A stretch of 60,443 nt of DNA from positions 1 through 60,443 of IMG/VR virus record IMGVR_UViG_3300042453_000310; one strand, written 5' to 3'. This document shows, piece after piece, positions 1 through 60,443 of this stretch. Position numbers and translations under genes: made by a program. The notes beneath the pieces are model-generated. The model worked only from the letters and a program-made list of their open reading frames with translations. It searched no databases and was not told where the DNA came from. The first letter of the stretch is position 1, and every line of letters begins with the position of its first letter. The stretch comes from a virus.

Positions 1-186
1 TCTAACATCGCCGATGTTGATAGTCACTTCGTCACTAAAGACAAGATCAGCCATCCCATTCTCACGAACGCGGTAAAACGGAACATAGTCACCGTCTTTG
101 AGCAGCTTGGCTGCCGTCTCTTTGGGTATTGCGCCAGTTGAAGCCAAGAACTTAATCAAGCCTGCGTTGTATGCGTTATACGTACT
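1..186. repeat. Overlapping end of the circular assembly (left copy)
   Basis: This matches 60258-60443 over 186 bp with mismatches only at 25, 58, 76 and 178. All four are third codon positions of the giant gene and are synonymous (GTG/GTC, AAT/AAC, TTT/TTC, TAT/TAC). The overlap lies inside a coding sequence, so it is best read as assembly closure of a circular map from a mixed population, not as a true terminal repeat. Confidence 0.9.
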
Positions 187-3100
187 GCGCACAACTTCCA
201 AAGCGTCTCTCAGTTTGGGGTTGGCGTTAACGTCAGCCATTGCAGCTTTAAGTTCTGCCTCTGTTACGCCTAGTGCACCTAAGTCAAGTTTAGACAAACC
301 CTTGTTGGCCGCACGTTGGGCAATCATGTACGTAGTGGCAAGATCAACACGGCCTCTAGCGTTGCCGCCCGGGATGCGCCCTATGGCATCAAAGACATCC
401 TTGGCGCTATTAGCTCCTGTAGACCTGATGCCGTGGAAGCCCTTGTCGTCTGTGTACAACGCCATCGGCCCTTCCATCAGCGTGGCGCTAACCACAGCCA
501 TCTTCTGGTCAGACTTGGTCACGCTGTACATAGCCTGTACAAAGTTCTTGGTGTCACCCATTTCCTTGGCGCCAGCCTTAAGCGCTTCACGCAAACCAGC
601 GCGCATATCCACCAAGTTCATCTCGGTCTCAAGCGCAATGTTCCTACCAAGGCGCTCACTAAAAGACTTGGGCTGTGCAATGATCTGTTTAGACAGGTCA
701 GTCAGCGCGTTGTCTTGTCCGTACTGTGCCTTGCGAGAGAACAGCAAGCCTTCGGACTGGCCGACAGGTTCCATATTGACGCCAATAATTTCAGGCGTGT
801 TGTCAATAAAAGCCCGTTCAATGTATCTACCGCGCTCGTTGTTCTGCTCAATCGCATCAATACCGGCAGCTTTAAGTATTTCTGTAAGTTTTTTTACCCC
901 AAGCTGTCTACGCATGTCGTAGAACAAACCATTAGCTTCGTATTCACCATCTTTCTTGGCTCTGTCCTGCAGTCTTTTGTCGCCGTACTTTTTCATCAAC
1001 GCGTCTAGTTTAGGGCGCTCGCCAAATGTAAACGTTGAATTAACGGAATAGACCCGCTCGCGAGGCACGTCATCCAAGGTGCGGTATATGTTGCCTATGG
1101 CAGGGCGTTTTGTAAGTGGTTTAATCTTGGACAGATCAAGCGACTTTAATATCTCTAATTCTTTTTCTCGTTTGGCAAGATGTTTTTCCAAGTTGGGAAT
1201 TCGAGTTGCACTGCTAGGTTTTTTTGCCTCAGAGATTACAGCCCTATCAAGCGCTGTTTGTGCGGTTTCAATTTCCCTTTCAACAAACAGTATTTTATTG
1301 TCAATGTGTTTTGCAGCGCCTTTATTCTTTGTTGGGTCAAGCGACTCCCCGTTATTTAAGGCACTGTTTACGTAAGCTGACAACAACCCAGATTCTAGTT
1401 TTGACTGCAGCATTGCTGTTGTCAACTCATCGTGTAGTGTATTTGTAAACTTATTGTCAAGGCTGCGGTAGTCTTGGTACGTTTTGTTTCCATACCCAGT
1501 TTCGTTTGCGGCTTTGCCAAAAGGCACTGCTTGCCTGTAATACTCGGCGTATTCTTTTTGCGGTGTAGTGTATGGCCCTTCGCCCAAAGACTCTTCTGCC
1601 AAGAACCTTAAATCAAAAGCACCTTCTCCTGAGCCAGCGTAACCAGTATCAAACGCTTTAAACTTTGCATCTGAGCCGTGCCATGTGCCCCGAATTTCAA
1701 GTTGTGCAGCACCATACGCAAGGTTTACCAACTCCCCAGCTTTGAGGTTTTTAGGATTGATACCAAACGCAGACAGTGCTCGTTTCAAAGTATCCACAAC
1801 CATGCGCAACCAGTTTGCAATAGGCGAACCTTTGGAACCGAGGGCTGCAGGTTTAACGCCTGCTTTGATTGCTTCCTCAACAGCGTATGCTAATAGCTCG
1901 TCGTCAAACTGTTCTTTGGATGTTTGTGCAGATTTAACACGAGCAAGCGCCGCTTTAGCAATCCTAGCTTCTACAGAGTTGTCGTTTAGCTTTGACCAGT
2001 TTTGAACAGCTTTTACTAGGTTCTTGTACTGCCCAGCATTGAACAAGTTTTTAAAGCCGAGGTGAACACCGACTTCGTGCAGCAATATTCCTAAGCCGTC
2101 GCCCTTGTCTATATTGTTGGCAAACATAAACGCTTTGCCAGTTCTTGGATCAACAAAAGCTTTAGCGTCTGTTGGAATGTCGCTGGCTTCTGGTGCTTTG
2201 GCTCGTTTTATGTTGTACTCGTACTGCAGATCCGAAAAGCTGTTGCTGTCTAAAAACTCTTCAACACTGTTAAATATCTCAATGCGGCCTTTGGTAAGCC
2301 CCGCCCCGCCCAACGCAGTGTCAATTTCTTTTTGCAACCCATCAACACTCAGCCCGTTTTTAGCCGCGCCGCGAGAAAATTCATAGCGAGGGTCGTACGT
2401 AGTATCAATGTCTTCGTCTGTAACGTTTGAAAATTCTGTGCCAGACAACTGGGTAAAATCTTCAGATGAGTACGGGACAATTTGTGCTTTCAATAGGCGG
2501 TTGATGTCATCGCCAACGCGATCCAACATAAATTGTGCAGACTCTATATCTTCCTTCAGCTTATCTCTGCGGTCTGCCAGCGTTGGGTTGCCCGATAGCA
2601 CTTCGCCAATTTCTGCAAGCTCGTCTTGGCTTCTGTTTATAAACTTGGTTAGACGTACTCGGTTATCTTCCATCGCATCAAGAATCTGGTTCTGTTGCTC
2701 GTACTCTTTGGCTTTAAACTCAGCGTCTAGCGTTGCTTTGTCCTTGGCTGCAGCAATACGCTCAGCAAACGCGTTGGCATCGGCCACTGCTTTCTCGGAC
2801 GTAATTGGTGCAGGTGTGCGGCTTTCAACAATCGGCTGTTTACTAATACCAACGTTTGCTTTTGACTGCTCTGTGCCACCGCGCAGTTTGCCCGGAGCTT
2901 GTGACTGTATGCGTGTAGCTTGGGAGACCTTAGCCATACTAGGCGGACGAACCTCATTGACGGCTTCTAGCTGTTCGTTGATAAGACGTTGTAAGTCGAT
3001 GATCTTATCGGTACGGTTTTGTTTAGCCTTTGTAGTTTTAGGCTCTGCGCTTGCTTGCAGTGCGTCCATTTGCTTTTGCAAATCTGCAAGGCGTTTAGTA

Positions 3101-6100
3101 CGACTGTCATACAGCTTGGCACGTTCTTCTTCAGCGGTAAACTCTTCGTCAAGCGTGCCAGACGCTTTCTTTGCGCGTGGGACTAATCGGTACTCGCCGG
3201 TTTCTTCGTCTTTCTCACGAACCAGCGTACCAACATTTTGCCCAGTCAAAACATTTGTACGGGTAATCCCTAAGCGATTTGATTTGCGTGCTTGCAATAC
3301 TTCGCGTTCTTTGAGGAACTCATTAAAACGCTTGCGGCGCTCTCTTTGAGACGACTGCATTTCTGCCAGCCGTTTTTGCATGTTCTTTAAGGTTTCAAGT
3401 GTTGCTTTGCCCTCTGACCAAGACAGCTTCTTAGCCTTGATGTCCTTGCGCAACTTGACAATAGCTTCTTCGCTCTTGTTGACGGCTTCTTGCTTTTTGG
3501 AAATGGTTTTCTCAAGCTTGGCAATACGATCGTCAATCAGCTTTGTAACTTCTGCGTAGACTTCTGGGTCGCTGGACGTAGCGCGCTCTGCTTCTGACAA
3601 CGCTTTTTGTTTGGTAATTTTTGACTTCTCGTAGTCAACAATAGAATTTTGCAGTGTCTCGACACGTTTGTTGCCAGCTTCAATTTGTTTCTTAAAGTCC
3701 TCGATCTGGGCAAACAACGCCTTAGCTTCTTTGAGGTTCTTGCGTGGGCCGCGGTAAGACGCCGCCTTTTCGGTTGCCTCGTCTAGTTTAATTTGCACGA
3801 GTTCTACGCGAACCTGCATTTCCAACACACCCTCTTCCATTCCTTGGATGCGTGCGTCTAACTCTGCAAAGTCTTTTGTGGCAGTTTTAATCAACTCCAA
3901 CATCTCACGACGCTTGCTAAAGTCAATACGCTGACCGGACAAAGCCTGCAACCTAGCGGTGCTTGCTTGGAAATCTTCTAACTGCGCTTTATTTCTAGTC
4001 TCTATTGTTTCACGTTCAGCAGAACTCAAAGGCTCGATAGGTACGTTAGCCATCTGCGCACCAAAACCACGAGACTCTGCGGCATCTTTAATAGCCTGCT
4101 CAACGCTTTTGGCAAGTTGTGATTCAACGTAACTAGCGTTCTCAGCCTTTTCAATCTCGCTGTCAAGTAAAGCTAGGTCGTTGTCTAGCGCACGTACGGC
4201 ATCGGCACCCAGCTCTTTGGCGGCACCAATTTCTTGTTTAATAGCTACAATTTCTGGATGCGTAGACAAGTTAACATCCAAGTCAACAGCCGCCAGTTCC
4301 AGTTGCAAGCCTAAGTCCAAAAGCGTTTTGCCAGCTTTGTTTAACTTACGCGTTTCTTCTCGTGCATCTAACTGCAAACGTAAATCGTTGTTCAAAAACG
4401 TGATAAAAGCCGATGATGGAATGTAGGGGTTAACCCTTTGTGTCTCCATCAAAAGTTCTAACTCGGCAATTTCTTTTTGCAAACGAGCCACGGTGCGTGG
4501 TTGCGTAACCCGTGCTTTGGATAACTGCTTCTGTAAATCTTGCAGTTGTTGCCTAGACTCGTACAGCAACGGATTGCGTTGACGCTCAAGCGCAGTAATA
4601 ACTTTCTGTTGCGCTGCTTCAATGCCGGGTAGTTTTTCGGCAAGACTGCCAAGTTTGTTTCGTGCTTGGCGCAACTCTTCTTTGGCTTTAAGCGTCTCTT
4701 GTGCGGCGTCAACCGCACGGTCGTCCATCTCTTTAAAGTTGGCAATGTTGTTGGCAATTAGGCGGCTAGTCTCTTCTGATCTATCAGCCAACTGATCTAC
4801 TTGCGATCTGACCCGCATGTACTCTAAACGCAAAGGCTCAAGCTCATCAGACAGACGTTTTAAAATACCTTCCATACGCACTTCAACATCCGCAACAATG
4901 TTTTTGGCGGCGCGGTCTTCAGAAATTTGTGACTTTTCCAACGCGGCTTTGCGTGCTTTTAACGCTTCAACTTGCTTACGAATATTGCCGATCTTTGCCT
5001 CATGTTCTTTGACTTGCAACTCCATACGGGCCACAGTCTCACGAGTAAGACCCATCTCTTGCCGAGCAGTCTTCAAGTAGTCGCTGGCCAGATAGCGATT
5101 CAGTTCAGCAAACGACTCAAAGATCGTACCTTTCTGTGTGGGGGCGAACCGCTCGGCTGCACTGCCTTGGATGGGGCCACGGTCTTCGGGAGCCACGTAC
5201 TGGACTTTGCCGTTGACGATGCGTGTAGCGGCTTGCGGAGCCACTTGCTGCGGCATGAACTCAGCGCCCAACTCTTGCTGAACGGCTGTTTGTGTAGGCT
5301 TAGTTGCTGTGCCAAACGCTGTCTCGCGTGTAGGCGTCTCTGTTTCAGAACGTTTGCCTTCTTCCAATGTACGCAGTGCGGCCTGCACATCGCGGGTCAT
5401 CTCAGGGCTTAGGTTGCCTGTGGTTGCTCGGTTGAGCCACTCCCCAATCAGGTTGCGGCGGTCTTCGTTGGATGTCACAGCGCCGTAGTTATCGGCAATC
5501 TGATCCAGTATCGACATGGTTTGCGTGTCGTAACGCTGGCGCTGTGCGTAGGCTCGATCCATCTGGTCGAGCAACATGTCTTGGGTGGTTGTAGTTGGTA
5601 TTGTTTCTGCGGGGCCAAACGCGCTGTACTTCGTACCCGCACGCCAGCGTGTGCTGATTGCGTCAAGCTCGGGGGTAATGTCGTTGCCGTAGCGTGCTGA
5701 AGAGTCTAGCAACGCACCCAGTTCTTTTTCAATCTCGGTAATGGTCTCGGGTTTAAGCTGGCCACGAACCAAAGAAATTTCTTTAAGCAAGCCGTCTATA
5801 ACGTCTTGCTTGGCTTCTTTATCCCCGCTTTTAAACTTGCCATAAGCGGCTTCTCGTTCCGCCGCTGCATCACGCAGAGCACGTTCTTGCCTTGGCAATC
5901 TACCAAGTTGTGGGCGAATACCCTGCCCACCAATTTTTAATTCGTCTGGAATAGTTACATTTTCCAGCATCCAATCGGGCGCGTACTGAAGAATTTCTTT
6001 TGCAGCGTCAAAATTATTTTTTGCAGTGTTTACAAGATATTTTGGATCCAAAGGGTTTTTAGAAACCGATGCCCATGTTACAAGTCTGTAGATGGAATCT

Positions 6101-8307
6101 CTGAGCATCTTGCTTCCGCTCAAGAAATTTAACTCACCTTTGTCATTGTTTGCCAACGCTTCAATAGCTTTTTGTTCCGCACGATTTAGTGGCTCTGTTC
6201 CAGCAACGGTTGTTGCAGTTCCAGTGCTTTTTATTTTGGCTTTACGGTCTTCCAAGTCACGGATCTGCTCTAACAGCGTAGACACACGCTCACGGTTAGA
6301 CCTACGTTCAATAGCAGTAGGAGCGCCATACGAACGGGCAACGTCTAGTTCTTTTTGTAGTCCAGCAATCTGTGCGTCAATATCTACACGGGTTCCAGCC
6401 ACAGGCATGTTTACCCGTTGCTGTTCACCACCAAACAATTCGCCTTGGGCTACTGTTTCTGGCAGGGGCTTAATCTGCTCAATGTCTGTAGCGAGGCGGC
6501 CTTCCTGTTGCATCTCATACGCTTGGCGCATCTGGCGCTGGTCTTCCAGAGCCGCTGCTTCTTCTTCTTCAAGCACTCGCTGAGTCTTCTGTGTTCTCTC
6601 TGTAACTGCCGCGCCAGTGGCTCTTTCTGCGGCTTCAATCTTGTTAATTTCTAGTTGTAAAGCATCGTAAATATTGCTTTGGCGTTTCTTTGCTAGACCC
6701 GGTATAGGCGTGCGGTTTTGCAGTGCTTGTTTAGCTAATACCGGATTAGCAACCAAATACTTTACATAGTCTTTATTAGCGTCTTCAATTTCTTTTTCGT
6801 TTGCAAACGCTTGCGTGTTTGCCAAATCCATTTGTTTTGCAACATACCCCTCCAGTGCTTGCCTTTGCGCTTGGCCGGGCACAGCAATCTGTTGCTCGTA
6901 GTAGCCTTCAAGATCAGGCGTACCTTTTGGTGTAGGAGCAGAAGAAACAGTGCCGGTCTGCTCCAACATGTAGTCGTATGGAGACATCCCAGCAACGCGA
7001 GCCTTTTCAGTTTCCTGCTCACGCAGGGGCTTGGTGCGGCGGTACTCAGGGACAAGCTCTTTTAACTGGTCTTGTAAATCTTTAAGAGCGTCTTGTGCTT
7101 CTTTGTACTCGGCTTTTTCAATAAGCGAGGGGTTGGCACCGGGCTTTTTGATCGCTGCCCTTTGTGTATTGAACTGCGCTAGCAAATCGTCATACTGTTT
7201 GCCAATATCAATTGCGTACTTTGGTGTCTGTTTTTCTGCCTCTAGCTCTTGTGCTTTAGCTTCTTCTTCGGCTTTCTGCTGGGCAGCAGTCAGTTGCTCT
7301 TGTTGCAAACGCAACGCACGCTTTTGCTGATCGGCTTCTTTCTCTTTCTCTGCGACTTCTGTTCTTGCACCAGAGCGCTCAGACAAACGACCAACACCAC
7401 CCAGCGGAGCCAACAGACCCACTTGATACGCTGTTTCGCCGTATTCTTTCATGGCACTGGGGTCTGTCAAAGACAGGCCAGCTTGGTAACGCTCCAGCAT
7501 CTGCTGGGCAATCTCGGTTGGGATTTCAGCCAAGGCACCAGTGGCCAGACCTTTAGACAACGTAACGGCTAGGCGTTCTTCAGCTAACTTGGCAACCTGT
7601 GCCGCGCTACGTCCGAGCAGTGCCTCGGCAGGGATACCTGTCAGCTTGCTAATAATCCTGCCGCCAAGGGGGATAAACGTACCAGCTACGTCCAGTGCGG
7701 CCGAGGGAATGGCTGTGCCCACAGCCTTGCGCATATCGATATTGATAGGCTCTCCGGCACGTTCTTGTTCAGCCGCTTGGCGCTCAACGTTCTGACCCAA
7801 GGCTTGTGCAGTACCGGAGGTGAGTGCACCCAACGCACCGCCAACCAATCTACCCTTTGCGCCAAACGCACTGCCCAGCGTAGAACCCAAACGACCGCTG
7901 GCGGCAAGGGCTGCAATGTTTGCGCCTTGCTCTGCAATGGCTCCGGGTACTTGACTGACTGCTTCGCCTGCGGCAGACAGAAGGCCACGTTCTTCGTATG
8001 CTTTTTTGACTTTCTCTAAGTCTGCGCCTTCTTCGTAGCGAGAACCGATGTCTCGGCTACGAGCTAAACCGGCTTTAGCCGCCTCTTCTTTGTCACCCAA
8101 CAGCGATGCGCCAGCAGTGCGGCCAGACGATATTAAAGACTCAAGACCCTTGCTGGCTTGTGCAAGGATGCCTTTTTTGCGTGCAGGGGCTTCTTCGGCA
8201 AAGGCTTCTGGGTATCTTTCTTTAGCCAAAGCCATGGCTTCGTCATACCCCATGCTGTTGGGAACTTTAAAGGAAGTGCCGTCTGGAAGGGGTAGGTATT
8301 TAGCCAT
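1..8307 (-). CDS. Giant polyvalent virion protein, N-terminal 2,769 codons (continues at 60257)
   Basis: The frame is open from ATG 8307 to base 1 and continues in frame at 60257 down to the TAA at 58326, about 3,412 residues in all. I see a short N-terminal motif (LPDGTSFKVP), a small-residue hydrophobic stretch near residues 120-170, about 1,700 residues of Lys/Glu/Gln-rich predicted coiled coil, a zincin-type HEVGVH motif at residues 2077-2082 (bases 2062-2079), and a WHGSD...GSGEGAF...EYAEYYR segment from about residue 2209 that resembles the ADP-ribosyltransferase domain of phage polyvalent proteins. Such proteins are packaged and injected with the DNA; that role is inferred here. No Shine-Dalgarno sequence precedes the ATG, unlike almost all neighbours. 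It is last in the late transcription unit, after three other internal-protein candidates. Confidence 0.85.
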   Translation of the reverse strand, partial: MAKYLPLPDGTSFKVPNSMGYDEAMALAKERYPEAFAEEAPARKKGILAQASKGLESLISSGRTAGASLLGDKEEAAKAGLARSRDIGSRYEEGADLEKVKKAYEERGLLSAAGEAVSQVPGAIAEQGANIAALAASGRLGSTLGSAFGAKGRLVGGALGALTSGTAQALGQNVERQAAEQERAGEPINIDMRKAVGTAIPSAALDVAGTFIPLGGRIISKLTGIPAEALLGRSAAQVAKLAEERLAVTLSKGLATGALAEIPTEIAQQMLERYQAGLSLTDPSAMKEYGETAYQVGLLAPLGGVGRLSERSGARTEVAEKEKEADQQKRALRLQQEQLTAAQQKAEEEAKAQELEAEKQTPKYAIDIGKQYDDLLAQFNTQRAAIKKPGANPSLIEKAEYKEAQDALKDLQDQLKELVPEYRRTKPLREQETEKARVAGMSPYDYMLEQTGTVSSAPTPKGTPDLEGYYEQQIAVPGQAQRQALEGYVAKQMDLANTQAFANEKEIEDANKDYVKYLVANPVLAKQALQNRTPIPGLAKKRQSNIYDALQLEINKIEAAERATGAAVTERTQKTQRVLEEEEAAALEDQRQMRQAYEMQQEGRLATDIEQIKPLPETVAQGELFGGEQQRVNMPVAGTRVDIDAQIAGLQKELDVARSYGAPTAIERRSNRERVSTLLEQIRDLEDRKAKIKSTGTATTVAGTEPLNRAEQKAIEALANNDKGELNFLSGSKMLRDSIYRLVTWASVSKNPLDPKYLVNTAKNNFDAAKEILQYAPDWMLENVTIPDELKIGGQGIRPQLGRLPRQERALRDAAAEREAAYGKFKSGDKEAKQDVIDGLLKEISLVRGQLKPETITEIEKELGALLDSSARYGNDITPELDAISTRWRAGTKYSAFGPAETIPTTTTQDMLLDQMDRAYAQRQRYDTQTMSILDQIADNYGAVTSNEDRRNLIGEWLNRATTGNLSPEMTRDVQAALRTLEEGKRSETETPTRETAFGTATKPTQTAVQQELGAEFMPQQVAPQAATRIVNGKVQYVAPEDRGPIQGSAAERFAPTQKGTIFESFAELNRYLASDYLKTARQEMGLTRETVARMELQVKEHEAKIGNIRKQVEALKARKAALEKSQISEDRAAKNIVADVEVRMEGILKRLSDELEPLRLEYMRVRSQVDQLADRSEETSRLIANNIANFKEMDDRAVDAAQETLKAKEELRQARNKLGSLAEKLPGIEAAQQKVITALERQRNPLLYESRQQLQDLQKQLSKARVTQPRTVARLQKEIAELELLMETQRVNPYIPSSAFITFLNNDLRLQLDAREETRKLNKAGKTLLDLGLQLELAAVDLDVNLSTHPEIVAIKQEIGAAKELGADAVRALDNDLALLDSEIEKAENASYVESQLAKSVEQAIKDAAESRGFGAQMANVPIEPLSSAERETIETRNKAQLEDFQASTARLQALSGQRIDFSKRREMLELIKTATKDFAELDARIQGMEEGVLEMQVRVELVQIKLDEATEKAASYRGPRKNLKEAKALFAQIEDFKKQIEAGNKRVETLQNSIVDYEKSKITKQKALSEAERATSSDPEVYAEVTKLIDDRIAKLEKTISKKQEAVNKSEEAIVKLRKDIKAKKLSWSEGKATLETLKNMQKRLAEMQSSQRERRKRFNEFLKEREVLQARKSNRLGITRTNVLTGQNVGTLVREKDEETGEYRLVPRAKKASGTLDEEFTAEEERAKLYDSRTKRLADLQKQMDALQASAEPKTTKAKQNRTDKIIDLQRLINEQLEAVNEVRPPSMAKVSQATRIQSQAPGKLRGGTEQSKANVGISKQPIVESRTPAPITSEKAVADANAFAERIAAAKDKATLDAEFKAKEYEQQNQILDAMEDNRVRLTKFINRSQDELAEIGEVLSGNPTLADRRDKLKEDIESAQFMLDRVGDDINRLLKAQIVPYSSEDFTQLSGTEFSNVTDEDIDTTYDPRYEFSRGAAKNGLSVDGLQKEIDTALGGAGLTKGRIEIFNSVEEFLDSNSFSDLQYEYNIKRAKAPEASDIPTDAKAFVDPRTGKAFMFANNIDKGDGLGILLHEVGVHLGFKNLFNAGQYKNLVKAVQNWSKLNDNSVEARIAKAALARVKSAQTSKEQFDDELLAYAVEEAIKAGVKPAALGSKGSPIANWLRMVVDTLKRALSAFGINPKNLKAGELVNLAYGAAQLEIRGTWHGSDAKFKAFDTGYAGSGEGAFDLRFLAEESLGEGPYTTPQKEYAEYYRQAVPFGKAANETGYGNKTYQDYRSLDNKFTNTLHDELTTAMLQSKLESGLLSAYVNSALNNGESLDPTKNKGAAKHIDNKILFVEREIETAQTALDRAVISEAKKPSSATRIPNLEKHLAKREKELEILKSLDLSKIKPLTKRPAIGNIYRTLDDVPRERVYSVNSTFTFGERPKLDALMKKYGDKRLQDRAKKDGEYEANGLFYDMRRQLGVKKLTEILKAAGIDAIEQNNERGRYIERAFIDNTPEIIGVNMEPVGQSEGLLFSRKAQYGQDNALTDLSKQIIAQPKSFSERLGRNIALETEMNLVDMRAGLREALKAGAKEMGDTKNFVQAMYSVTKSDQKMAVVSATLMEGPMALYTDDKGFHGIRSTGANSAKDVFDAIGRIPGGNARGRVDLATTYMIAQRAANKGLSKLDLGALGVTEAELKAAMADVNANPKLRDALEVVRSTYNAYNAGLIKFLASTGAIPKETAAKLLKDGDYVPFYRVRENGMADLVFSDEVTINIGDVR

Positions 8308-8402: not shown

Positions 8403-10538
8403 TTATTCGTCACCGGCGTTTCGCACAGGGCCTGTGGCTTCATTTTCAAAGCCCAAATTCAGTGCATACGCACTTAAGAATGGGTTGGTCATCAGCGCGG
8501 AACGAAGTCTGTCTTTGTAGATTTTGTCTTTAGCCGCTTGTGATGTTGCTGTTGAGTAGTCCACGTCTTTGGCCAAGTCTGCCATGACTTGTTTCTGCAC
8601 CTTGGTGAACTCTGCCATTTTCTTGTCGTCACCAGCAAAACGCTTAGCGATCATTGCATTTCGTGCAAGGCCGGGAGCCGCTGCGATACGAGACTGTTCA
8701 AGGTTAACGGCACCGCCAAACATTGTCTTGGCTTCATCACGCCCGATGTCAAACTCTTTCATAGCAAAGTCAGTTAAAGAGCGCAATCCTGCGTTTGCCG
8801 CCTTATCAACATCACGCTTGGCTTCACGCAATTCTTTGGTGTCCATGCTCTTCTGGTTAAAGCGCACATCTTCCAAGCGTCCGTATGCATCGTCCAACTT
8901 GTCACGGGCGTCCGTAATCTTTTCCATGCTCTTGCGGTAAGCGGCAGTGCCGGCCATAGCGCCTTGACCGATGTTGGCAAAAGCGTTGGGGGACGTGCCA
9001 GCCATCATAGCTAAGCCAGCTTCAAGTAGTGCCAACCCGCCAGACTGACCTTCTTCTTTTGCAATGCGCTCTTCTTTGCCTTTGAGTTTGGTTTCACGGT
9101 CTTTGCCATACTCGCCACGAGCAGCAATATCGTCTTGCAGTTGTTTGTAATAGTTTTGCGCTTGCAACGTTTCGGAACCCGCAAGGCTGCCCATCTGACT
9201 GCGTATTGAATCGAGCTTAGCTTGGCGCTCGTCAGGCTTGCCTGCAAACAACGCGTACATGTCTTTAATGCTCTGAGCACTACTGCCTGTGCCGCCACCT
9301 TGACCGCCTGCACCACCTTGACCACCTGCACCACCAGTATCGGCAGGTTCTTTGGCTTCGGGAAGCTTAGACATTGTGTTTGGGTTGACCTTCAGACCTA
9401 AGCGCTGAGCCTCGGCATTTGACTGCTGGTCGGGGCTGTATGTTGGAATAAACTTGGCCGCGGCTTTTTTGGTCTGCTCTGGCGTAGCTTTTGGATTGGC
9501 TTTAAGCCAATCTTCGTACTCTTTGCTGGTTAGCATCCCTTCGCTATCCAAATACGCTGTAAGAGCACCACCACCAAGCATACCGCCAGCAGTACCCAAA
9601 GGGCCTAAGAAAGAACCCAAGCCAGTTGTAAGCATTGGAATACCCGCTTTAGCTGCTGTACCAAACGCTTGTTTTGCTTTACCAAAAGAAGACACGTTAG
9701 GGTCGTCATAGAAAGCGCCTTGCTGATACGCTTCATACCCAGCAGGGAGCGCGCCCAATACGCCCGCTGTTTTCACGGCCCCACCTACTGGCAGTTTGCT
9801 CGTCTTTGTAGTGCCTATATCAGACAACGTATCGCCAATTTTTCTAAGTGTGGGGCCATATTTCTGACCTGCTTCAAACGCCTTACTTGGTGCGGCTGGC
9901 GGTGCCGCCGTAGGCGTTGCTGCTTTTGGCGTTGCTGCTGGTTTTTGTGGGCCAGCAGTGTCTTTTTTAAACTCGTTTAATACTTTTTCTTTTTCTGAAA
10001 AATCAAGCGATGTGAAAGCTTTTTCGTCAATGTTTTTGGTTTTTAAAAACGCTTTAAAAGATGCGCTGTTAAATACACCACCAGCATAGCCCGGCACACC
10101 GCCACCAGACATACGAACCACGGGCTCGCTTTGCTGGGCAAAGTTAAACATGCCGCCCATACCGCCAGTGGCCATACCTTCTTCGTCATCTTCGTAGCCT
10201 GCAATACCGCCATCAGCCATACGCTGAATGTTGGGGGTGGGGATACGCGCAATACCTTGATCTTCTGGCAAACCGCCAGCGGCCATACCAGTCACGTTAC
10301 CCATAGCATCCACAGGTGCTGCTTCTTGCGCAATGCCGGCAATAGCGGCATCTGCCACCTTGGGTTGCGGAGCAGCCATGCGTGCTTGCGCGGCAGTACG
10401 CAGTTGTTTGCGTTGATTGCTCTCAGCTACAGCCAAAGACAGAATATAGGGATTACCCTTATTCATCATTGCGTACTGTTGAAGGGCGCGGTCAGCCATG
10501 CCGCGCAGGGTTGTAGTGATTTGGTTTACGTTAATCAT
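8403..10538 (-). CDS. Internal virion protein candidate, 711 aa
   Basis: I recognise no enzymatic domain. The N-terminal third has repeats of a 'MADGGIAGY / MAAGGLP / MATGGMG' type, common in structural and ejection proteins of environmental podoviruses. An Ala/Gly-rich potentially membrane-active stretch lies near residues 270-330 (GLGSFLGPLGTAGGMLGGG), followed by a Gly/Gln linker and a charged helical C-terminal region. It sits between two other large Gly-rich proteins and the giant protein, the position internal core proteins occupy in podoviruses. The ATG at 10538 follows the stop of the upstream gene by 5 bp. The role as an ejection or core protein is inferred from position and composition. 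Confidence 0.65.
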   Translation of the reverse strand: MINVNQITTTLRGMADRALQQYAMMNKGNPYILSLAVAESNQRKQLRTAAQARMAAPQPKVADAAIAGIAQEAAPVDAMGNVTGMAAGGLPEDQGIARIPTPNIQRMADGGIAGYEDDEEGMATGGMGGMFNFAQQSEPVVRMSGGGVPGYAGGVFNSASFKAFLKTKNIDEKAFTSLDFSEKEKVLNEFKKDTAGPQKPAATPKAATPTAAPPAAPSKAFEAGQKYGPTLRKIGDTLSDIGTTKTSKLPVGGAVKTAGVLGALPAGYEAYQQGAFYDDPNVSSFGKAKQAFGTAAKAGIPMLTTGLGSFLGPLGTAGGMLGGGALTAYLDSEGMLTSKEYEDWLKANPKATPEQTKKAAAKFIPTYSPDQQSNAEAQRLGLKVNPNTMSKLPEAKEPADTGGAGGQGGAGGQGGGTGSSAQSIKDMYALFAGKPDERQAKLDSIRSQMGSLAGSETLQAQNYYKQLQDDIAARGEYGKDRETKLKGKEERIAKEEGQSGGLALLEAGLAMMAGTSPNAFANIGQGAMAGTAAYRKSMEKITDARDKLDDAYGRLEDVRFNQKSMDTKELREAKRDVDKAANAGLRSLTDFAMKEFDIGRDEAKTMFGGAVNLEQSRIAAAPGLARNAMIAKRFAGDDKKMAEFTKVQKQVMADLAKDVDYSTATSQAAKDKIYKDRLRSALMTNPFLSAYALNLGFENEATGPVRNAGDE

Positions 10539-10543
10539 GTTCT

Positions 10544-11599
10544 TTAGCCCATGTTGTAGATAGCTAAATCCGCCAAACCTGCGGGCTTGTCTCTATATTC
10601 GACATCCTCAACAGAGCCGCCTCCGGCAAACATGCCTAGTTTACTTGCTCCAATTGCAGCCGTACCTAAACCAGCCGCTTGAGACAACATTGATGGGGGT
10701 TGCTGATACATAGTCTGCGACTGCTGAGTCAAAGGTAAACCACGGATCATGTCAGACATGAAGCCCATCTGCTTGTATGGGTAGTTCTGAGAGTTCAGGT
10801 AGTCTTGGTATTGATTGTTCAATACGTTCTGTGTTTGCTGTTGCTGCTGGCCACCAAATTGGTTCTGCATACCCAAGATACCCATGTTTTGCTGGTACTG
10901 CGTATTGCCAATGTTGGCCAAGTTACTAGCGGCTTGATTGGCTGTTTGCAAGCCCTGTAGTCCCAGACCTGCACCAAACTGTTGCTGCTGAGCGTTTAGT
11001 TGGTTCTGCGTGTTGTACTGCCCCATTGCTTGGTTGTAAGCGGTATTCAACCCTTGCGCTTGAATGTCGCCCTTTTGACGAGCCAAGTTACCTGCGGCTT
11101 GCCCACGCATGAGGTAGTCGCCACTGCCACCAAACGCGCCTGAACGAGCAGCCTGCGCACCCTGTGCTTGACGGGCAATATCAGATTGACGCTGAGCATC
11201 CGCTTGTTGACGGGCAACGATGTTATCCATGTAAGGATTCATCATGCTGTTACCAGTCACATTGCCCTGCGCGTCTCGGGTAGTGGCAGCGCTAAACGCT
11301 TGGTTAAAGTCCGCTGGGTTAAATGTGTACTGCGTATTAAGTGCGCCTAACCCCGCCATACCCGCCATAGCTGTAGCATCACCCAACTGAGGAGCCGCTT
11401 TCATTAAGCCTGCGTTTTCATACGCTTGTTTCTGCAAAGGTGTGAACTGCGCTACACGATCGCCCATGTACTGCTGGAAGGGGTTGATGTCAGGATCGGT
11501 GTAAAGCTGTGCTTTACCTAACAGTTCTTCGGCGTAAGGGCGGATCGGTTCCGCAAAGCCTGTTTGGTATTCTGTTACTGCGGATGGTGCTGTAGCCAT
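10544..11599 (-). CDS. Gln/Asn-rich internal virion protein candidate, 351 aa
   Basis: The protein opens with YQTGFAEPIRPYAEELLGKA, then consists of helical Gln/Asn/Ala-rich sequence (for example QQQQFGAGLGLQGLQTANQAA) with Met-Gly-Gln repeats, and ends with FAGGGSVEDVEYRDKPAGL. Many phages have a protein with this opening between the tail hub and the largest ejection proteins. There is no enzyme motif. Position and low-complexity helical composition suggest an internal core or ejection protein, possibly forming a conduit with its two large neighbours. Confidence 0.65.
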   Translation of the reverse strand: MATAPSAVTEYQTGFAEPIRPYAEELLGKAQLYTDPDINPFQQYMGDRVAQFTPLQKQAYENAGLMKAAPQLGDATAMAGMAGLGALNTQYTFNPADFNQAFSAATTRDAQGNVTGNSMMNPYMDNIVARQQADAQRQSDIARQAQGAQAARSGAFGGSGDYLMRGQAAGNLARQKGDIQAQGLNTAYNQAMGQYNTQNQLNAQQQQFGAGLGLQGLQTANQAASNLANIGNTQYQQNMGILGMQNQFGGQQQQQTQNVLNNQYQDYLNSQNYPYKQMGFMSDMIRGLPLTQQSQTMYQQPPSMLSQAAGLGTAAIGASKLGMFAGGGSVEDVEYRDKPAGLADLAIYNMG

Positions 11600-21949: not shown

Positions 21950-22864
21950 TCAAGTTACCTTCTGACGGAACTGACCAGAACGATATGCGTCTTGACGCTC
22001 CATACCATCACCCAAACGTTTAGCCAACGCTAATGCTTCCATGAACTTCTGGTTGTACAACTGCATCATGTCTTGCTCACCCTTCATGTAGGTGTAAGCC
22101 TCAACCAAAGACGCGTACAACAACACCGTATCAAAGTTATCACCTAGCCATGTAGTACCAGTAGAATTAGTCACAGTGGCAACCGGAATAGAAAACGAAG
22201 AACCTGTGCCGCCAATTGTGGAAGCTGCTGCAGACATAACGTCTCCAACTGTGTACTGAACTCCGCCGTTGGTAATAGTCACAACCGTCACCGCCCCGCC
22301 AGCCACAGTAATTGTTGCTAACGCTCCGCTACCCGTACCACCAGTCAAGGGCACATTAAAATAAGTACCTGCCGTATATGCGCTACCGCCGGTAATAGCA
22401 CCAAGCGTAGCTATGGGGCTTTGCACAATGGACACTGGGTAGAAATAGTAGTGGAGTTCAGACCCGTAAGCCGCGTCGGGTGTTGGGCCGAGAATAAACG
22501 TTAACTCTGTTGCGTCGTCAGAACGTGGGCCAAACAAAGCATAGTACTTAGGTATCCCCGTGTCTGTGGGCTGTGGGTACGCTTGCCGAATAAAGTTAAC
22601 ATCTTTGTTTAACAAGTACTCGTACTCACCACTGGCGTTAATGACAGCCAACGAATACACTGCCAAAAAATCCGTAGGGCACTGTAAGTATTTATTGCTC
22701 GTAGTCATTGACCCCGTCACGTTCTTACGAATAGACGGAAACTGCACCGAGTTATAAATACGTTGCTCAGCTTGCTCAACAAACACGGGAATACTAGCCA
22801 CGAAATCTGCTTCCGTGTTCTCCGTGTACGCTTGAAGCGCGTTGCTGAGTTCAGTGTAATTCAT
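21950..22864 (-). CDS. Head-tail adaptor with inserted beta domain, 304 aa
   Basis: The opening ELSNALQAYTENTEADFVAS, IPVFVEQAEQRIYNSVQFPS and KYLQCPTDFLAVYSLAVIN, together with the C-terminal WLGDNFDTVLLYASLVEAYT, are strongly characteristic of the phage adaptor/neck family that joins portal to tail. Between the two halves (about residues 150-225) sits a Gly/Thr-rich beta module (TGGTGSGALATITVAGGAV, ITNGGVQYTVGDV) that looks like an inserted domain facing outward. It is followed closely by other virion genes. Confidence 0.75.
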   Translation of the reverse strand: MNYTELSNALQAYTENTEADFVASIPVFVEQAEQRIYNSVQFPSIRKNVTGSMTTSNKYLQCPTDFLAVYSLAVINASGEYEYLLNKDVNFIRQAYPQPTDTGIPKYYALFGPRSDDATELTFILGPTPDAAYGSELHYYFYPVSIVQSPIATLGAITGGSAYTAGTYFNVPLTGGTGSGALATITVAGGAVTVVTITNGGVQYTVGDVMSAAASTIGGTGSSFSIPVATVTNSTGTTWLGDNFDTVLLYASLVEAYTYMKGEQDMMQLYNQKFMEALALAKRLGDGMERQDAYRSGQFRQKVT

Positions 22865-23690: not shown

Positions 23691-24266
23691 TTACGCAACC
23701 TCCATTCGGTTGCCCTTGCGAGAATTTTCAGCCCCGGGGATAACTTGCAAATTAGTCGGAACATGAAGCCCCGAAACAGTTTTGCCACGCAGTGGAACAG
23801 TGTGGTCTACGTGCCACGGAAAACCAAAAAGGTCTGTGCGAAGCTGTGCAAGTTCGTACGCCTGCTCTATGAGCCAGTAATCGTCCTCAACCAACCACGA
23901 AGGTGTGCGCTGTACTTTTGCCAACTGTCGCTGACGTGTCCAAGCTAGCACCCGACCGGAATTGCGCCGTGCCCATGCCGCTTTTTCTGCGTTTCGGGCT
24001 TCTCTGTTCTTTGCCATCGTATTTTTTACGGTGGCCTTAACTTTTTCGGGGTTGCACGCCACATATTTTTTTTGAGCAATCCGTTTTCTTTCAAGCAGGG
24101 CAGGTCGGTTTGCTTCCTTGTATGCAGCAAGTTTTATGTGTGCGCATGTTATGCACTGCCGATTACTTACAAGACGCTCCGCAACGTGCCCATGTTTACA
24201 CGCAATACCCGTAAAGTAACGCGTTAATCCGTCGGTTTTGGCTTGTAAAAGAGAAACGATTTGCAT
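23691..24266 (-). CDS. HNH homing-type endonuclease, 191 aa
   Basis: The C-terminal HNH nuclease motif is clear: WHVDHTVPLRGKTVSGLHVP TNLQ, with His152, Asp154, His155 and Asn172, ending in NSRKGNR. The N-terminus carries a zinc-knuckle-like set (CKHGH, C38, C41), and the middle is a basic helical DNA-binding region. It shares its start base with the end of the neck gene and sits alone among structural genes, as expected for a mobile homing endonuclease. There is no sign of an intron or intein. Confidence 0.85.
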   Translation of the reverse strand: MQIVSLLQAKTDGLTRYFTGIACKHGHVAERLVSNRQCITCAHIKLAAYKEANRPALLERKRIAQKKYVACNPEKVKATVKNTMAKNREARNAEKAAWARRNSGRVLAWTRQRQLAKVQRTPSWLVEDDYWLIEQAYELAQLRTDLFGFPWHVDHTVPLRGKTVSGLHVPTNLQVIPGAENSRKGNRMEVA

Positions 24267-25195
24267 CAGGTTCCGCTTCCAATAAACATCTGACGGGGCA
24301 CAAATCGGACACTAGCTTTTTCCCTGTCCTCGTCGGCGGCTAATTGCCACGCCGTATCATACTGCTCTTTCAAGATGGGCAAACGATCAGCACCGCCTTC
24401 AATCTTCAGAGCCAAGTAATAGGCTAAGCCTGCCACCATACAGGGCAGGAAGCGGAAAGGTACATCCATCGTGCGTACACCCCCGCCAGCATCATCAATA
24501 CGGCGCATGCGCCAGTAAACAAACTGATACGTTGCACTGTTGTCTGGGGTCGGCCAGAGGGTTACAGAGGGCAAATTCTGCGTGTACACAGCCACACCAG
24601 TTAAGTGTGCTGCTGCAGTTGTGCCGTTCTGCCCACGGAAGCAGTTGTTAAGCACGTTGCCAGAGATGTAGCCGTACTGAATAGTCTCGTTTTCAATCAA
24701 CAAGAACCCCGTAGCTGGAAGCCCGACTACTGAAGTTAGTGTGATTGTGGTGGCCGTAGCTGTAATCCCGCCGTTAAGCGTAGTGCCAATAGAAGAAGTT
24801 TGACCATCCAAACGCTGATACCACACCTGAATCGGTCGGGCTTGTTGCAGTTTGTTGGGGATTGTGGCATAGGTAGAAACACTGATACGCGTGATGGTTA
24901 AGTCAGCCTGTGTGGATGCGCTTCCCGCGCCCGTGCGAATCACATGCTCAAGTAGATCCACCGTATCTACGGGTAGTGCGTAGTTGTTTAGACCCGGAGT
25001 TAGGTTAATTGTCCCCTGCTCAAACGTCCACATGTTGACACCACGGTTTGCCCAATCAGCAAACATCAAGTTCAATGACCGACGGGCTGTACGTAAATCG
25101 TAGCCCGTACGCAACTCCGAACCAGCGCGTTCAAACGCTTCCTCAACCAACTCAGTAAGGTCAAGGTTAAACGCTGTGGTTCCTGAAGTGGTCAT
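24266..25195 (-). CDS. Neck / head-tail connector protein candidate, 309 aa
   Basis: The opening FNLDLTELVEEAFERAGSEL and RTARRSLNLMFADWANRGVN MWT, followed by beta-rich NNYALPVDTVDLLEHVIRTG and the RFLPCMVAGLAYYLALKIEG helix, is a recurrent pattern for phage neck or stopper proteins encoded upstream of the adaptor. I recognise the pattern but do not know an exact family name. It overlaps its upstream neighbour by ATGA and is followed by the HNH gene. Confidence 0.65.
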   Translation of the reverse strand: MTTSGTTAFNLDLTELVEEAFERAGSELRTGYDLRTARRSLNLMFADWANRGVNMWTFEQGTINLTPGLNNYALPVDTVDLLEHVIRTGAGSASTQADLTITRISVSTYATIPNKLQQARPIQVWYQRLDGQTSSIGTTLNGGITATATTITLTSVVGLPATGFLLIENETIQYGYISGNVLNNCFRGQNGTTAAAHLTGVAVYTQNLPSVTLWPTPDNSATYQFVYWRMRRIDDAGGGVRTMDVPFRFLPCMVAGLAYYLALKIEGGADRLPILKEQYDTAWQLAADEDREKASVRFVPRQMFIGSGT

Positions 25196-58194: not shown

Positions 58195-58357
58195 GAAGGG
58201 GCAGGGGTTTTTTATACCCTGCCTCGACACCGAAGCCATGAAAGAGTGGGGCTTAAAGAAAGCCTTCTCCTTGCGGATACTAGATGCCCACGCTAGCGTG
58301 GGCATCCTCGACGGCAAGCTCGGGGTTATGTTTTACCGGAAGCCTCAATTCGTTTAA
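58148..58357 (+). CDS. Small conserved phage protein, 69 aa
   Basis: The protein MPMKYYSLRLPWEKVEKGQG FFIPCLDTEAMKEWGLKKA... DAHASVGILDGKLGVMFYRK is a short conserved protein known from many phages, often next to replication or regulatory genes. It starts inside the end of the primase-helicase gene; ATG 58154 is an alternative start. The perfect palindrome at 58283-58306 encodes its DAHASVGI. The last 32 bp overlap the giant late gene in the opposite direction. Confidence 0.75.
   Translation: MPMKYYSLRLPWEKVEKGQGFFIPCLDTEAMKEWGLKKAFSLRILDAHASVGILDGKLGVMFYRKPQFV
58283..58306. repeat. Perfect 24-bp palindrome at the convergent junction
   Basis: One half-site is GATGCCCACGCT and the other is its exact reverse complement, centred at CT|AG. 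It lies in the last plus-strand gene, 20 bp from the end of the giant minus-strand gene, where early and late transcription meet. No U-run on either side. Confidence 0.9.
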
Positions 58358-60443
58358 TAGCCGCCTCAAACTTCTCAGAGATAGCCTGCCGAGCATCGTT
58401 GATTCGGTCGATACGCTTGCGTTTTTCTTCCCCTGACAGACCCGCCATACCTGTAACACGCTCTTCGTCTGCACGCAGTCGGCCCATCTGTGTGCGGTAC
58501 TGGTTAGCTATGCCTGCCGACACAATCTCTGTGCGGTTGTCAGCCAAGAACTCTTTAGCGTCTGCTGCACGGCCTTGCTTGAGCATGCTGTCGTAAGTGT
58601 CTTTAGCTTGCTTAGACTCCTTGGCTATGCGGTACACCACATCAGCATCAGCACCGCCATACTTCTTCTGGAACGAGCTGCCAATAAACGGCATGTCTGT
58701 GATGCGTTTCTCTGGGGCTTCGCCTTGCGTTTCCTTGCGGAACAAGCCATTGGCTGCAGCCGCAATAATCAGCGGTAGCTGACCAAAGTAGCCGTTAGAG
58801 ATGTGCTCAATCTGTATAGGCGACAGCATTGGCAACATTTTGCTCATAGATTTGGCGACTTCGGTCGTGCTTACATTGAAGCGCTCGGCAGTAGTCTTGT
58901 CCTGCATGCGTTGAGACTCGATGTCGCTACCTGTGTAAAAGTTCTTGTTGCTGTAAACCTCAAACGCAGGCTTAATAATCTGCGGCATAAACTTGGACGA
59001 GTAGCCGGGGATCGACATCAAGAACATATCGCGCAGTGCGTCAAACTGTTGCTTGCCATCCGTCTCCGCTTTCATAGCGTCTACTGCGGCAACAGCCAAC
59101 GAGAAGAACCAGCCAGCCTCATAGGGGATAGGCAGCTTAAACGGCTCTTCAACGCCCGGCACAGGGATAAAGAAATTGCTGTACTTGTCCTTTGGCTTGG
59201 CACGTTTGAAGGCTTCGTCGTCTTCCATAGCCATGGCGTAAACCACGCCAACGCCCACCAACAACATGGCGTTGTTGAAAAACTTCTGCTTGATCTTTTG
59301 CTGTTCTTCAAACGGCATTTGACCTGTAGCGGCTTTGTACAGCACGTTCAAGCCTTGGATCTGCGCATTAAAGAACGGGATCAAACGGCTGGCGTACTGC
59401 ACAGTAGGTGACAGACCACGCTTGTAGAAGTTCATCGACTCCATAGTCATCAAGTCGGCCTCGACTTCAGACAATCCGTTCTTGATTGCGTTTTGGAACA
59501 CCAACGCACGGGTAGCAGCATCGGCACGCATCGCGGCTCTGTCCATCGTAGCAAACAACTGGTTAACAGCGCCTTGTTGGTTACCCGCCAACTGCAATGC
59601 CATCTTAGCAATGTCGTCTGGGTCTCCTGTAAAGATGCCGCTTTGGACTAGGCCACGCTTGATGAGCTCTTCGCCTGCCTTGCTTGTACCGCGAGTCATA
59701 CGTACAAACTCAGTGGCAGCTTTAACAACCGCTGTTAGAGGGTTGTAGTTCAGACCGCCTGTAAACGATGCGGCCATTGGGTCACGAATTAACTGACGCG
59801 CAATATAGATTGGCATGCGGGTCACACCAGAACGCAGGAGATCGCCCGCAAGCCCGCCAATCTTCAAAAACGCAGGGAGCGTCAAGTGAGCGCCTTCCAA
59901 GCTCTTTACAATCAACTCAGCAGGGATACCACCCATGATGGTGTCGTCGGTTTTAACGCGTACCCAGCGGTCGCCCGTGTCTTTAGGATCGGCAGGGTCT
60001 GGCTCTTGGTTAAAGCGGACAATGTCTGCACCCGTCGGGCCTTTCCCTTTGTGGATTGGCATGGCGTTGGTTATCTTGCCTTCCTTGTCCACGGGGCCTT
60101 TGCCCGCACCAATTGATTGGAACGCGTAGCCCACATTGCGGGCTGCAAGGTTTGTCAGCGCTTTGTCTGTAATGAGCAGTGTGTTGCGTGGGAGCGACTC
60201 AGTCAGGGGAAGGATGCGAGTCTCGCCACCTTTGAGTTCCGCCAAGTACGGCTGGTATCTAACATCGCCGATGTTGATAGTGACTTCGTCACTAAAGACA
60301 AGATCAGCCATCCCGTTCTCACGAACGCGGTAGAACGGAACATAGTCACCGTCTTTGAGCAGCTTGGCTGCCGTCTCTTTGGGTATTGCGCCAGTTGAAG
60401 CCAAGAACTTAATCAAGCCTGCGTTGTATGCGTTGTACGTACT
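58326..60443 (-). CDS. Giant polyvalent virion protein, C-terminal part
   Basis: This is the C-terminal 643 residues of the gene that starts at 8307, plus 62 codons (60258-60443) that duplicate bases 1-186. It begins around DYVPFYRVRENG and contains hydrophobic segments (NNAMLLVGVGVVYAMAM near 59260), consistent with a membrane-interacting ejection protein. The pattern resembles the C-terminal 'large polyvalent protein' (LPD) regions of phage giant proteins; I recognise this from memory. It ends RIEASGKT-stop, and the last 32 bp overlap the convergent plus-strand gene ending at 58357. An internal TTG at 60416 could be mistaken for a start, but the frame is continuous upstream. Confidence 0.85.
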   Translation of the reverse strand, partial: STYNAYNAGLIKFLASTGAIPKETAAKLLKDGDYVPFYRVRENGMADLVFSDEVTINIGDVRYQPYLAELKGGETRILPLTESLPRNTLLITDKALTNLAARNVGYAFQSIGAGKGPVDKEGKITNAMPIHKGKGPTGADIVRFNQEPDPADPKDTGDRWVRVKTDDTIMGGIPAELIVKSLEGAHLTLPAFLKIGGLAGDLLRSGVTRMPIYIARQLIRDPMAASFTGGLNYNPLTAVVKAATEFVRMTRGTSKAGEELIKRGLVQSGIFTGDPDDIAKMALQLAGNQQGAVNQLFATMDRAAMRADAATRALVFQNAIKNGLSEVEADLMTMESMNFYKRGLSPTVQYASRLIPFFNAQIQGLNVLYKAATGQMPFEEQQKIKQKFFNNAMLLVGVGVVYAMAMEDDEAFKRAKPKDKYSNFFIPVPGVEEPFKLPIPYEAGWFFSLAVAAVDAMKAETDGKQQFDALRDMFLMSIPGYSSKFMPQIIKPAFEVYSNKNFYTGSDIESQRMQDKTTAERFNVSTTEVAKSMSKMLPMLSPIQIEHISNGYFGQLPLIIAAAANGLFRKETQGEAPEKRITDMPFIGSSFQKKYGGADADVVYRIAKESKQAKDTYDSMLKQGRAADAKEFLADNRTEIVSAGIANQYRTQMGRLRADEERVTGMAGLSGEEKRKRIDRINDARQAISEKFEAAIKRIEASGKT
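60258..60443. repeat. Overlapping end of the circular assembly (right copy)
   Basis: This is the partner of 1-186. It carries the alternative allele at four synonymous sites. Joining the window here restores the reading frame of the giant virion protein. Confidence 0.9.

What the first reader, a model, noticed from the sequence alone, without database searches (positions are those of the whole stretch)
1..8307. A 3,412-residue polyvalent virion protein spans the cut of the circular map
Read across the window ends, one open frame of 10,239 bp covers 17 percent of the genome. It combines a zincin motif (HEVGVH), an ADP-ribosyltransferase-like segment, about 1,700 residues of coiled coil and a C-terminal region with membrane segments. 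Any annotation that does not join the ends would split or miss it. Delivering a protease and an ART-like effector with the DNA would give the phage enzymatic activity in the first moments of infection.
Basis: partly seen in the sequence, partly recalled or inferred. Interest (0 to 1): 0.75.

Follow-up and report, generated by a model that had tools for sequence, protein, structure and literature searches.

The report
Giant injected phage protein, swappable protease module
This phage encodes a 3,412-residue protein, probably packed in the virion and injected, whose protease(-ADP-ribosyltransferase) section is swapped like a cassette among close relatives; it belongs to a known class, but the clean swapping and the short peptide marking both cassette edges make it testable what the protease cuts.

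Summary
The window ends overlap by exactly 186 bases (4 synonymous differences); joined, they give one 3,412-aa frame. An independent contig (L002) carries the same uninterrupted protein, 100% identical, across the join. The domain reading is partly right. HEVGVH is an HExxxH motif, not HExxH; with an invariant downstream Glu (E2144) it fits the HEXXXH zincin clade of polyvalent proteins (Iyer 2017), although Pfam's MPTase-PolyVal profile does not match. The ART is divergent: below Pfam's cut-off, supported by profile-profile comparison, but not folded confidently by AlphaFold. The coiled coil is nearer 700 than 1,700 residues. The C-terminal ~870 residues contain LPD38 (E 1e-28) and share a fold with many phage polyvalent proteins. 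So it is a new member of a known kind: a phage-type polyvalent, probable ejection protein. Among relatives the zincin(-ART) block is an exchangeable cassette: three zincin classes, at least 18 class changes on the C-terminal tree, and pairs with 97%-identical flanking DNA but unrelated cassettes. Cassette edges carry a class-linked tripeptide (FSR in this class; [FY]R[TSV] in another) with non-repeated codons, which I propose as self-cleavage sites. Virion location, cleavage and activity are untested.

The parts
1..8307 (-). residues 1-2769 of the 3,412-aa polyvalent protein (ATG at 8307)
   Evidence: identical frame in L002
58326..60443 (-). residues 2708-3412 (60258-60443 repeats residues 2708-2769); stop at 58326-58328
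1..186 (.). terminal overlap, head copy (same stretch as 60258-60443, 4 synonymous differences)
60258..60443 (.). terminal overlap, tail copy
8200..8307 (-). conserved N-terminal motif MAKYLPLPDG...A...YPEAF (residues 1-36)
   Evidence: found in many relatives
7666..7722 (-). hydrophobic segment, residues 196-214
4378..5139 (-). heptad-periodic coiled-coil stretch, residues 1057-1310
2608..4005 (-). heptad-periodic coiled-coil stretch, residues 1435-1900
2371..2379 (-). upstream edge tripeptide FSR, residues 1977-1979; proposed cleavage site
1693..2379 (-). HExxxH zincin domain, residues 1977-2205
2062..2079 (-). HEVGVH motif, residues 2077-2082
1876..1878 (-). E2144, presumed third zinc ligand, invariant in 45 relatives
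772..1692 (-). divergent ART-like domain, residues 2206-2512 (H2210, Y2246; acid E2497 or D2502)
1408..1683 (-). ART-PolyVal (PF18760) profile match, E 0.0023, below cut-off
733..741 (-). downstream edge tripeptide FSR, residues 2523-2525; proposed cleavage site
1..687 (-). start of the conserved C-terminal chassis, residues 2541-2769
58326..60257 (-). rest of the C-terminal chassis, residues 2770-3412
58683..59219 (-). LPD38 domain (PF18857)
59226..59282 (-). hydrophobic segment, residues 3095-3113
10544..11599 (-). gene two upstream, PHROG 4287 'DNA ejection protein'
   Evidence: E 8.8e-15
8403..10538 (-). 711-aa gene next to the giant gene, unknown, same strand

Best explanation
A phage-type polyvalent protein that works as a cargo-carrying ejection protein. 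The N-terminal part (short conserved motif, hydrophobic segment, heptad-rich spacer) and the ~870-residue helical C-terminal LPD38 region form a chassis that is packed in the capsid and leaves with the DNA. Between them sits an exchangeable cassette: a zincin of the HExxxH clade, here followed by a divergent ADP-ribosyltransferase. During packaging or after injection the zincin cuts at the FSR peptides that bound the cassette, freeing a ~546-residue zincin-ART piece that acts on the host. Shown: the intact frame, the conserved residues, the cassette exchange, and the edge peptides with class-linked identity. Inferred: packaging, injection, cleavage, enzyme activities and target. The confidence is for the polyvalent ejection-protein reading with an exchangeable zincin(-ART) cassette; the self-cleavage step alone is rated in the section on the most novel reading.
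For: Frame intact in an independent contig. LPD38 E 1e-28; the C-terminal model (pLDDT 73) has 63 BFVD matches with E <= 0.001, many named large polyvalent proteins, others RelA/SpoT, methylase or LT_GEWL proteins. LPD38 in isolated phages is fused to helicase, methylase and GNAT cargo. The gene two upstream is a DNA ejection protein homologue. Almost every survey member that reaches far enough has a HExx(x)H zincin at a fixed place before the chassis; H2077, E2078, E2144 are invariant in 45. Cassette swaps: at least 18 class changes on the C-terminal tree; L058/L045 have 97%, 94% and 97% identical flanking blocks with unrelated cassettes, breaks at the edge peptides. Edge peptides: this class FSR downstream 17/17, upstream FSR 15/17 plus 2 LSR; another class [FY]R[TSV]; new zincins: 12/31 FSR upstream against 0 in 23,060 background residues, 25/29 [FY]R[TSV] against 3%; codons differ between the two edges. 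ART: hhalign probability 93%.
Against: No virion or activity data. The MPTase-PolyVal profile does not match. The ART match is below cut-off and its first half folds with pLDDT < 50. The zincin-ART model has no PDB match. FS[RK]-like peptides also end domains in other polyvalent proteins and could be structural. N4 vRNAP, with a zincin at the same place, is packaged unprocessed (PMC5512222). L003's near-identical ART has N where this one has D2502.
Confidence: 0.6

Rival explanations
1. The zincin is itself the effector: it cuts host proteins after injection and does not process its own chain; the edge peptides are only end strands or linkers of an exchangeable domain.
For: Zincin classes diversify by wholesale exchange, as expected of arms-race effectors; FS[RK]-like peptides follow other domains too.
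Against: The same edge peptide follows the zincin class across different inserts (two ART types, a TAT-like insert), which a generic linker does not predict.
Confidence: 0.3
2. Mainly a structural ejection (envelope-crossing) protein; the zincin and ART folds are remnants without activity.
For: Ejection-gene neighbourhood; hydrophobic and heptad-rich parts; N4 vRNAP's zincin domain is a packaged, unprocessed part of a giant ejection protein.
Against: H-E...E are invariant in 45 zincins with otherwise only 12% mean column identity, so catalysis appears to be selected.
Confidence: 0.15
3. Member of the N4 virion RNA polymerase family (giant ejected protein of ~3,500 aa with a zincin and a large helical C-terminus).
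For: Same size and order: membrane-active N-terminus, middle, zincin, helical C-terminus; N4's zincin HELVHAST resembles the HExxH class of this family.
Against: No RNA polymerase similarity by BLASTP; the C-terminal profile does not match N4's C2 (probability 0.2%).
Confidence: 0.03
4. The joined frame is an assembly artefact of two unrelated ends.
For: 4 mismatches in the terminal overlap.
Against: L002 reads across the join with a 100% identical protein; L003 and L024 also span it.
Confidence: 0.01

Closest known systems
Phage-type polyvalent proteins (Iyer et al. 2017, PMC5512222)
   Same: Giant multidomain phage protein with zincin, ART and an LPD domain; LPD38 listed as phage-only; an HEXXXH zincin clade described.
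   Different: This ART and zincin fall outside the Pfam models; fine-scale cassette exchange with class-linked edge peptides was not found in that paper's text.
Uncultured Caudovirales LPD protein A0A6J5PFI7 and phage PTXU04/Pondi giant proteins
   Same: Same C-terminal fold: TM 0.94 at 58% identity for A0A6J5PFI7; TM 0.71 for PTXU04; Pondi has LPD38 (E 1e-37) and an HExxxH zincin 162 residues before the chassis.
   Different: Different N-terminal and cargo parts; Pondi's protein is 2,192 aa and has no convincing match to the ART profiles.
N4 virion RNA polymerase (Schitoviridae)
   Same: ~3,500-aa injected virion protein with a zincin before a large helical C-terminus (PMC12633501).
   Different: No polymerase here; C-terminal regions not detectably homologous.
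Polymorphic toxins (as discussed in PMC5512222)
   Same: Fixed carrier with exchanged effector cassettes.
   Different: Here the cassette is internal, flanked by chassis on both sides, and carried by a phage gene.

Membership tests
Phage-type polyvalent proteins | Large chain joining unrelated enzymatic and LPD domains | tested here: met
   LPD38 E 1e-28; zincin; ART-like
Phage-type polyvalent proteins | Encoded beside virion structural genes | tested here: met
   ejection protein homologue, structural protein, portal, terminase on the same strand
Phage-type polyvalent proteins | Packaged in the virion and injected | not testable with these tools
   needs virion proteomics
Polyvalent zincins (MPTase), HEXXXH clade | HExx(x)H helix plus downstream Glu helix | tested here: met
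   H2077, E2078, H2082, E2144; helix order in model
MPTase-PolyVal PF18818 | Match to the Pfam profile | tested here: not met
   no match at E <= 10
ART-PolyVal PF18760 | Match above the 31.2-bit cut-off | tested here: not met
   14.1 bits, E 0.0023; works-like evidence: hhalign 93%
ART, HYD type | H in strand 1, Y in strand 2, acid in strand 5 | tested here: inconclusive
   H2210 and Y2246 invariant in 10; acid E2497 or D2502 unresolved
N4 vRNAP | Single-subunit RNA polymerase domain | tested here: not met
   no BLASTP similarity
N4 vRNAP | Homologous C2 domain | tested here: not met
   hhalign probability 0.2%

The most novel reading that the evidence does not exclude
The cassette is a self-excising effector: each zincin class recognises its own edge tripeptide (FSR for this class, [FY]R[TS] for the HExxGH class) on both sides of the cassette and cuts itself and the attached ART out of an injected ejection protein, so that site and protease travel together when cassettes are swapped between phages.
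Probability: 0.22. Interest if true: 0.8.

Novelty: new member of a known kind. Interest (0 to 1): 0.5.

Why it matters
Zincins are the commonest domain in polyvalent proteins, yet what they cut is unknown; the literature mostly proposes self-processing without sites (PMC5512222). Near-identical phage genes with different cassettes, plus a peptide that tracks the protease class at both edges, give exact candidate sites and natural swap controls, so the question can be tested with purified fragments. It also shows phage injected proteins diversifying by cassette exchange.

Tried and rejected
AlphaFold of zincin-ART from 13 rows: pLDDT 61, ART first half < 50, no PDB match. C-terminal fold against PDB: nothing. 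Homology of the C-terminus to N4 vRNAP C2: rejected. Host or prophage: none of the 39 pattern hits in genome contigs encodes a relative; no host assigned. Pfam on whole chain and pieces found only LPD38 above cut-off. Ejection neighbours against PDB and phages: nothing useful. Edge peptide as a DNA repeat: rejected, codons differ and flanks are unrelated. Edge peptide as a universal end of canonical ART-PolyVal domains: only 14 of 40 show any form. PLxRFG motif literature: nothing relevant.

Full report
OBSERVATION. The window is an IMG/VR virus record of 60,443 bp. Its first and last 186 bases are the same stretch with four differences, all synonymous. Reading the minus strand from 8307 to 1 and on from 60257 to 58326 gives 3,412 residues and a stop. 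The junction is real: L002, from a separate IMG/VR contig, matches the window across the join and carries the identical 3,412-aa frame. The two end copies are alleles, one shared with L002 and one with L003.

ANATOMY. Residues 1-36 carry a motif (Y-[ILV]-x-LP[DN]G ... A ... P-x-F) found in many relatives. Residues 196-214 are hydrophobic. Heptad periodicity is significant mainly in 1057-1310 and 1435-1900, so the coiled coil is about 700 residues, not 1,700. Residues 1977-2205 are a zincin: H2077-E-V-G-V-H2082 is HExxxH, and H2077, E2078 and E2144 are invariant across 45 diverse relatives. The model shows a helix, three strands, the HExxxH helix and a later helix with E2144, the order that Iyer et al. 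give for polyvalent zincins. Residues 2206-2512 are ART-like: PF18760 matches 1408-1683 at E 0.0023, below cut-off; profile comparison with 27 canonical ART-PolyVal domains gives 93% probability over the H and Y motifs. The fold model does not confirm it. Residues 2541-3412 are the C-terminal chassis with LPD38; its model matches many phage polyvalent proteins in BFVD and no solved structure.

CONTEXT. The gene ends a minus-strand block that also encodes the terminase and portal, capsid and SU10-type adaptors, holin and endolysin, a virion structural protein and, two genes upstream, a DNA ejection protein homologue. This fits a short-tailed phage and an ejection protein; it does not prove virion location.

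RELATIVES. A scan with the C-terminal alignment found 121 viral relatives, of which 79 loci were kept, and none among genome contigs. Complete frames run from about 2,100 to 3,600 aa. Almost every member that reaches far enough has a zincin 130-170 residues before the chassis, or about 310 with a TAT-like insert, or about 430-470 with the ART. There are three zincin classes: HEVG[VA]H, HExxGHxG[LV] and HExxHAAT. The first two are related (probability 98%, E 6e-13); the third only weakly (61%). The divergent ART occurs only with HEVGVH; one HExxGH member, L067, has a canonical ART (E 3.3e-28).

CASSETTE EXCHANGE. On the C-terminal tree the cassette class changes at least 18 times in 52 labelled tips (minimum 3; shuffled mean 24). 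L058 and L045 share 97%, 94% and 97% identical DNA in three flanking blocks, yet one has the zincin plus ART and the other an HExxGH zincin; L020 and L022 behave alike at 83-86%. The breaks fall at the edge peptides. The architectures recur in contigs from many samples, so chimeric assembly is unlikely.

EDGE PEPTIDES. In this class FSR (or LSR) lies 80-100 residues before HE, and FSR lies 14-18 residues before the chassis start in 17 of 17 members; FSR is absent from 22 HExxGH proteins, which instead have [FY]R[TSV] at the matching places in most cases. In zincins not used to find the pattern, FSR is upstream in 12 of 31 (none in 23,060 background residues) and [FY]R[TSV] in 25 of 29 (3% expected). 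These loci share descent, so the counts are not fully independent, and some of the new members have FSK rather than FSR at the downstream edge. Codons at the two edges differ about as wobble would predict and flanks are unrelated, so the peptide, not a DNA repeat, is kept.

MECHANISM. Best reading: an injected carrier whose zincin cuts at its own edges to release zincin-ART. Shown: frame, conserved residues, exchange, edges. Inferred: packaging, injection, cutting, ART activity, target. N4 vRNAP has the same order and a zincin resembling the HExxH class, but no detectable C-terminal homology and is packaged unprocessed, which is the main caution.

NOVELTY. Polyvalent proteins, the HEXXXH clade, phage ARTs and LPD38 are described in PMC5512222; the protein is a new member. 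I did not find fine-scale cassette exchange or edge peptides in that paper or in the searches made, which cover open-licence papers only.

Noticed in passing
L026, L049, L055, L064 (after the HEVGAH zincin): A twin-arginine (TAT-like) sequence MSRRTFLRGA sits inside the giant protein right after the zincin, in the slot where other members carry the ART.
   Followed up: partly
L025:6605-10117: About 1,000 residues of unidentified cargo between an HExxH zincin and the chassis; no convincing Pfam match.
   Followed up: no
window 41568-43658 (+): 696-aa protein with a weak amidoligase match (PHROG 2443, E 5e-6).
   Followed up: no
window 58283-58306: 24-base perfect palindrome GATGCCCACGCTAGCGTGGGCATC between the convergent ends of the giant gene and the 964-aa primase/helicase-like gene.
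   Followed up: no
window 21950-22864 and 24266-25195 (-): Two separate SU10-adaptor-like genes, each matching a partly different stretch of the profile.
   Followed up: no
L105, L121, L124, L129, L154 and others: Canonical ART-PolyVal domains elsewhere are often followed by a DIR[FY]-type strand, e.g. DIRFSK; a possible general domain-end motif of polyvalent proteins.
   Followed up: partly
N4 vRNAP residue 2228 (L161): N4's zincin motif LIHELVHAST resembles the HExxHAAT class of this family (hmmsearch E 0.003).
   Followed up: partly
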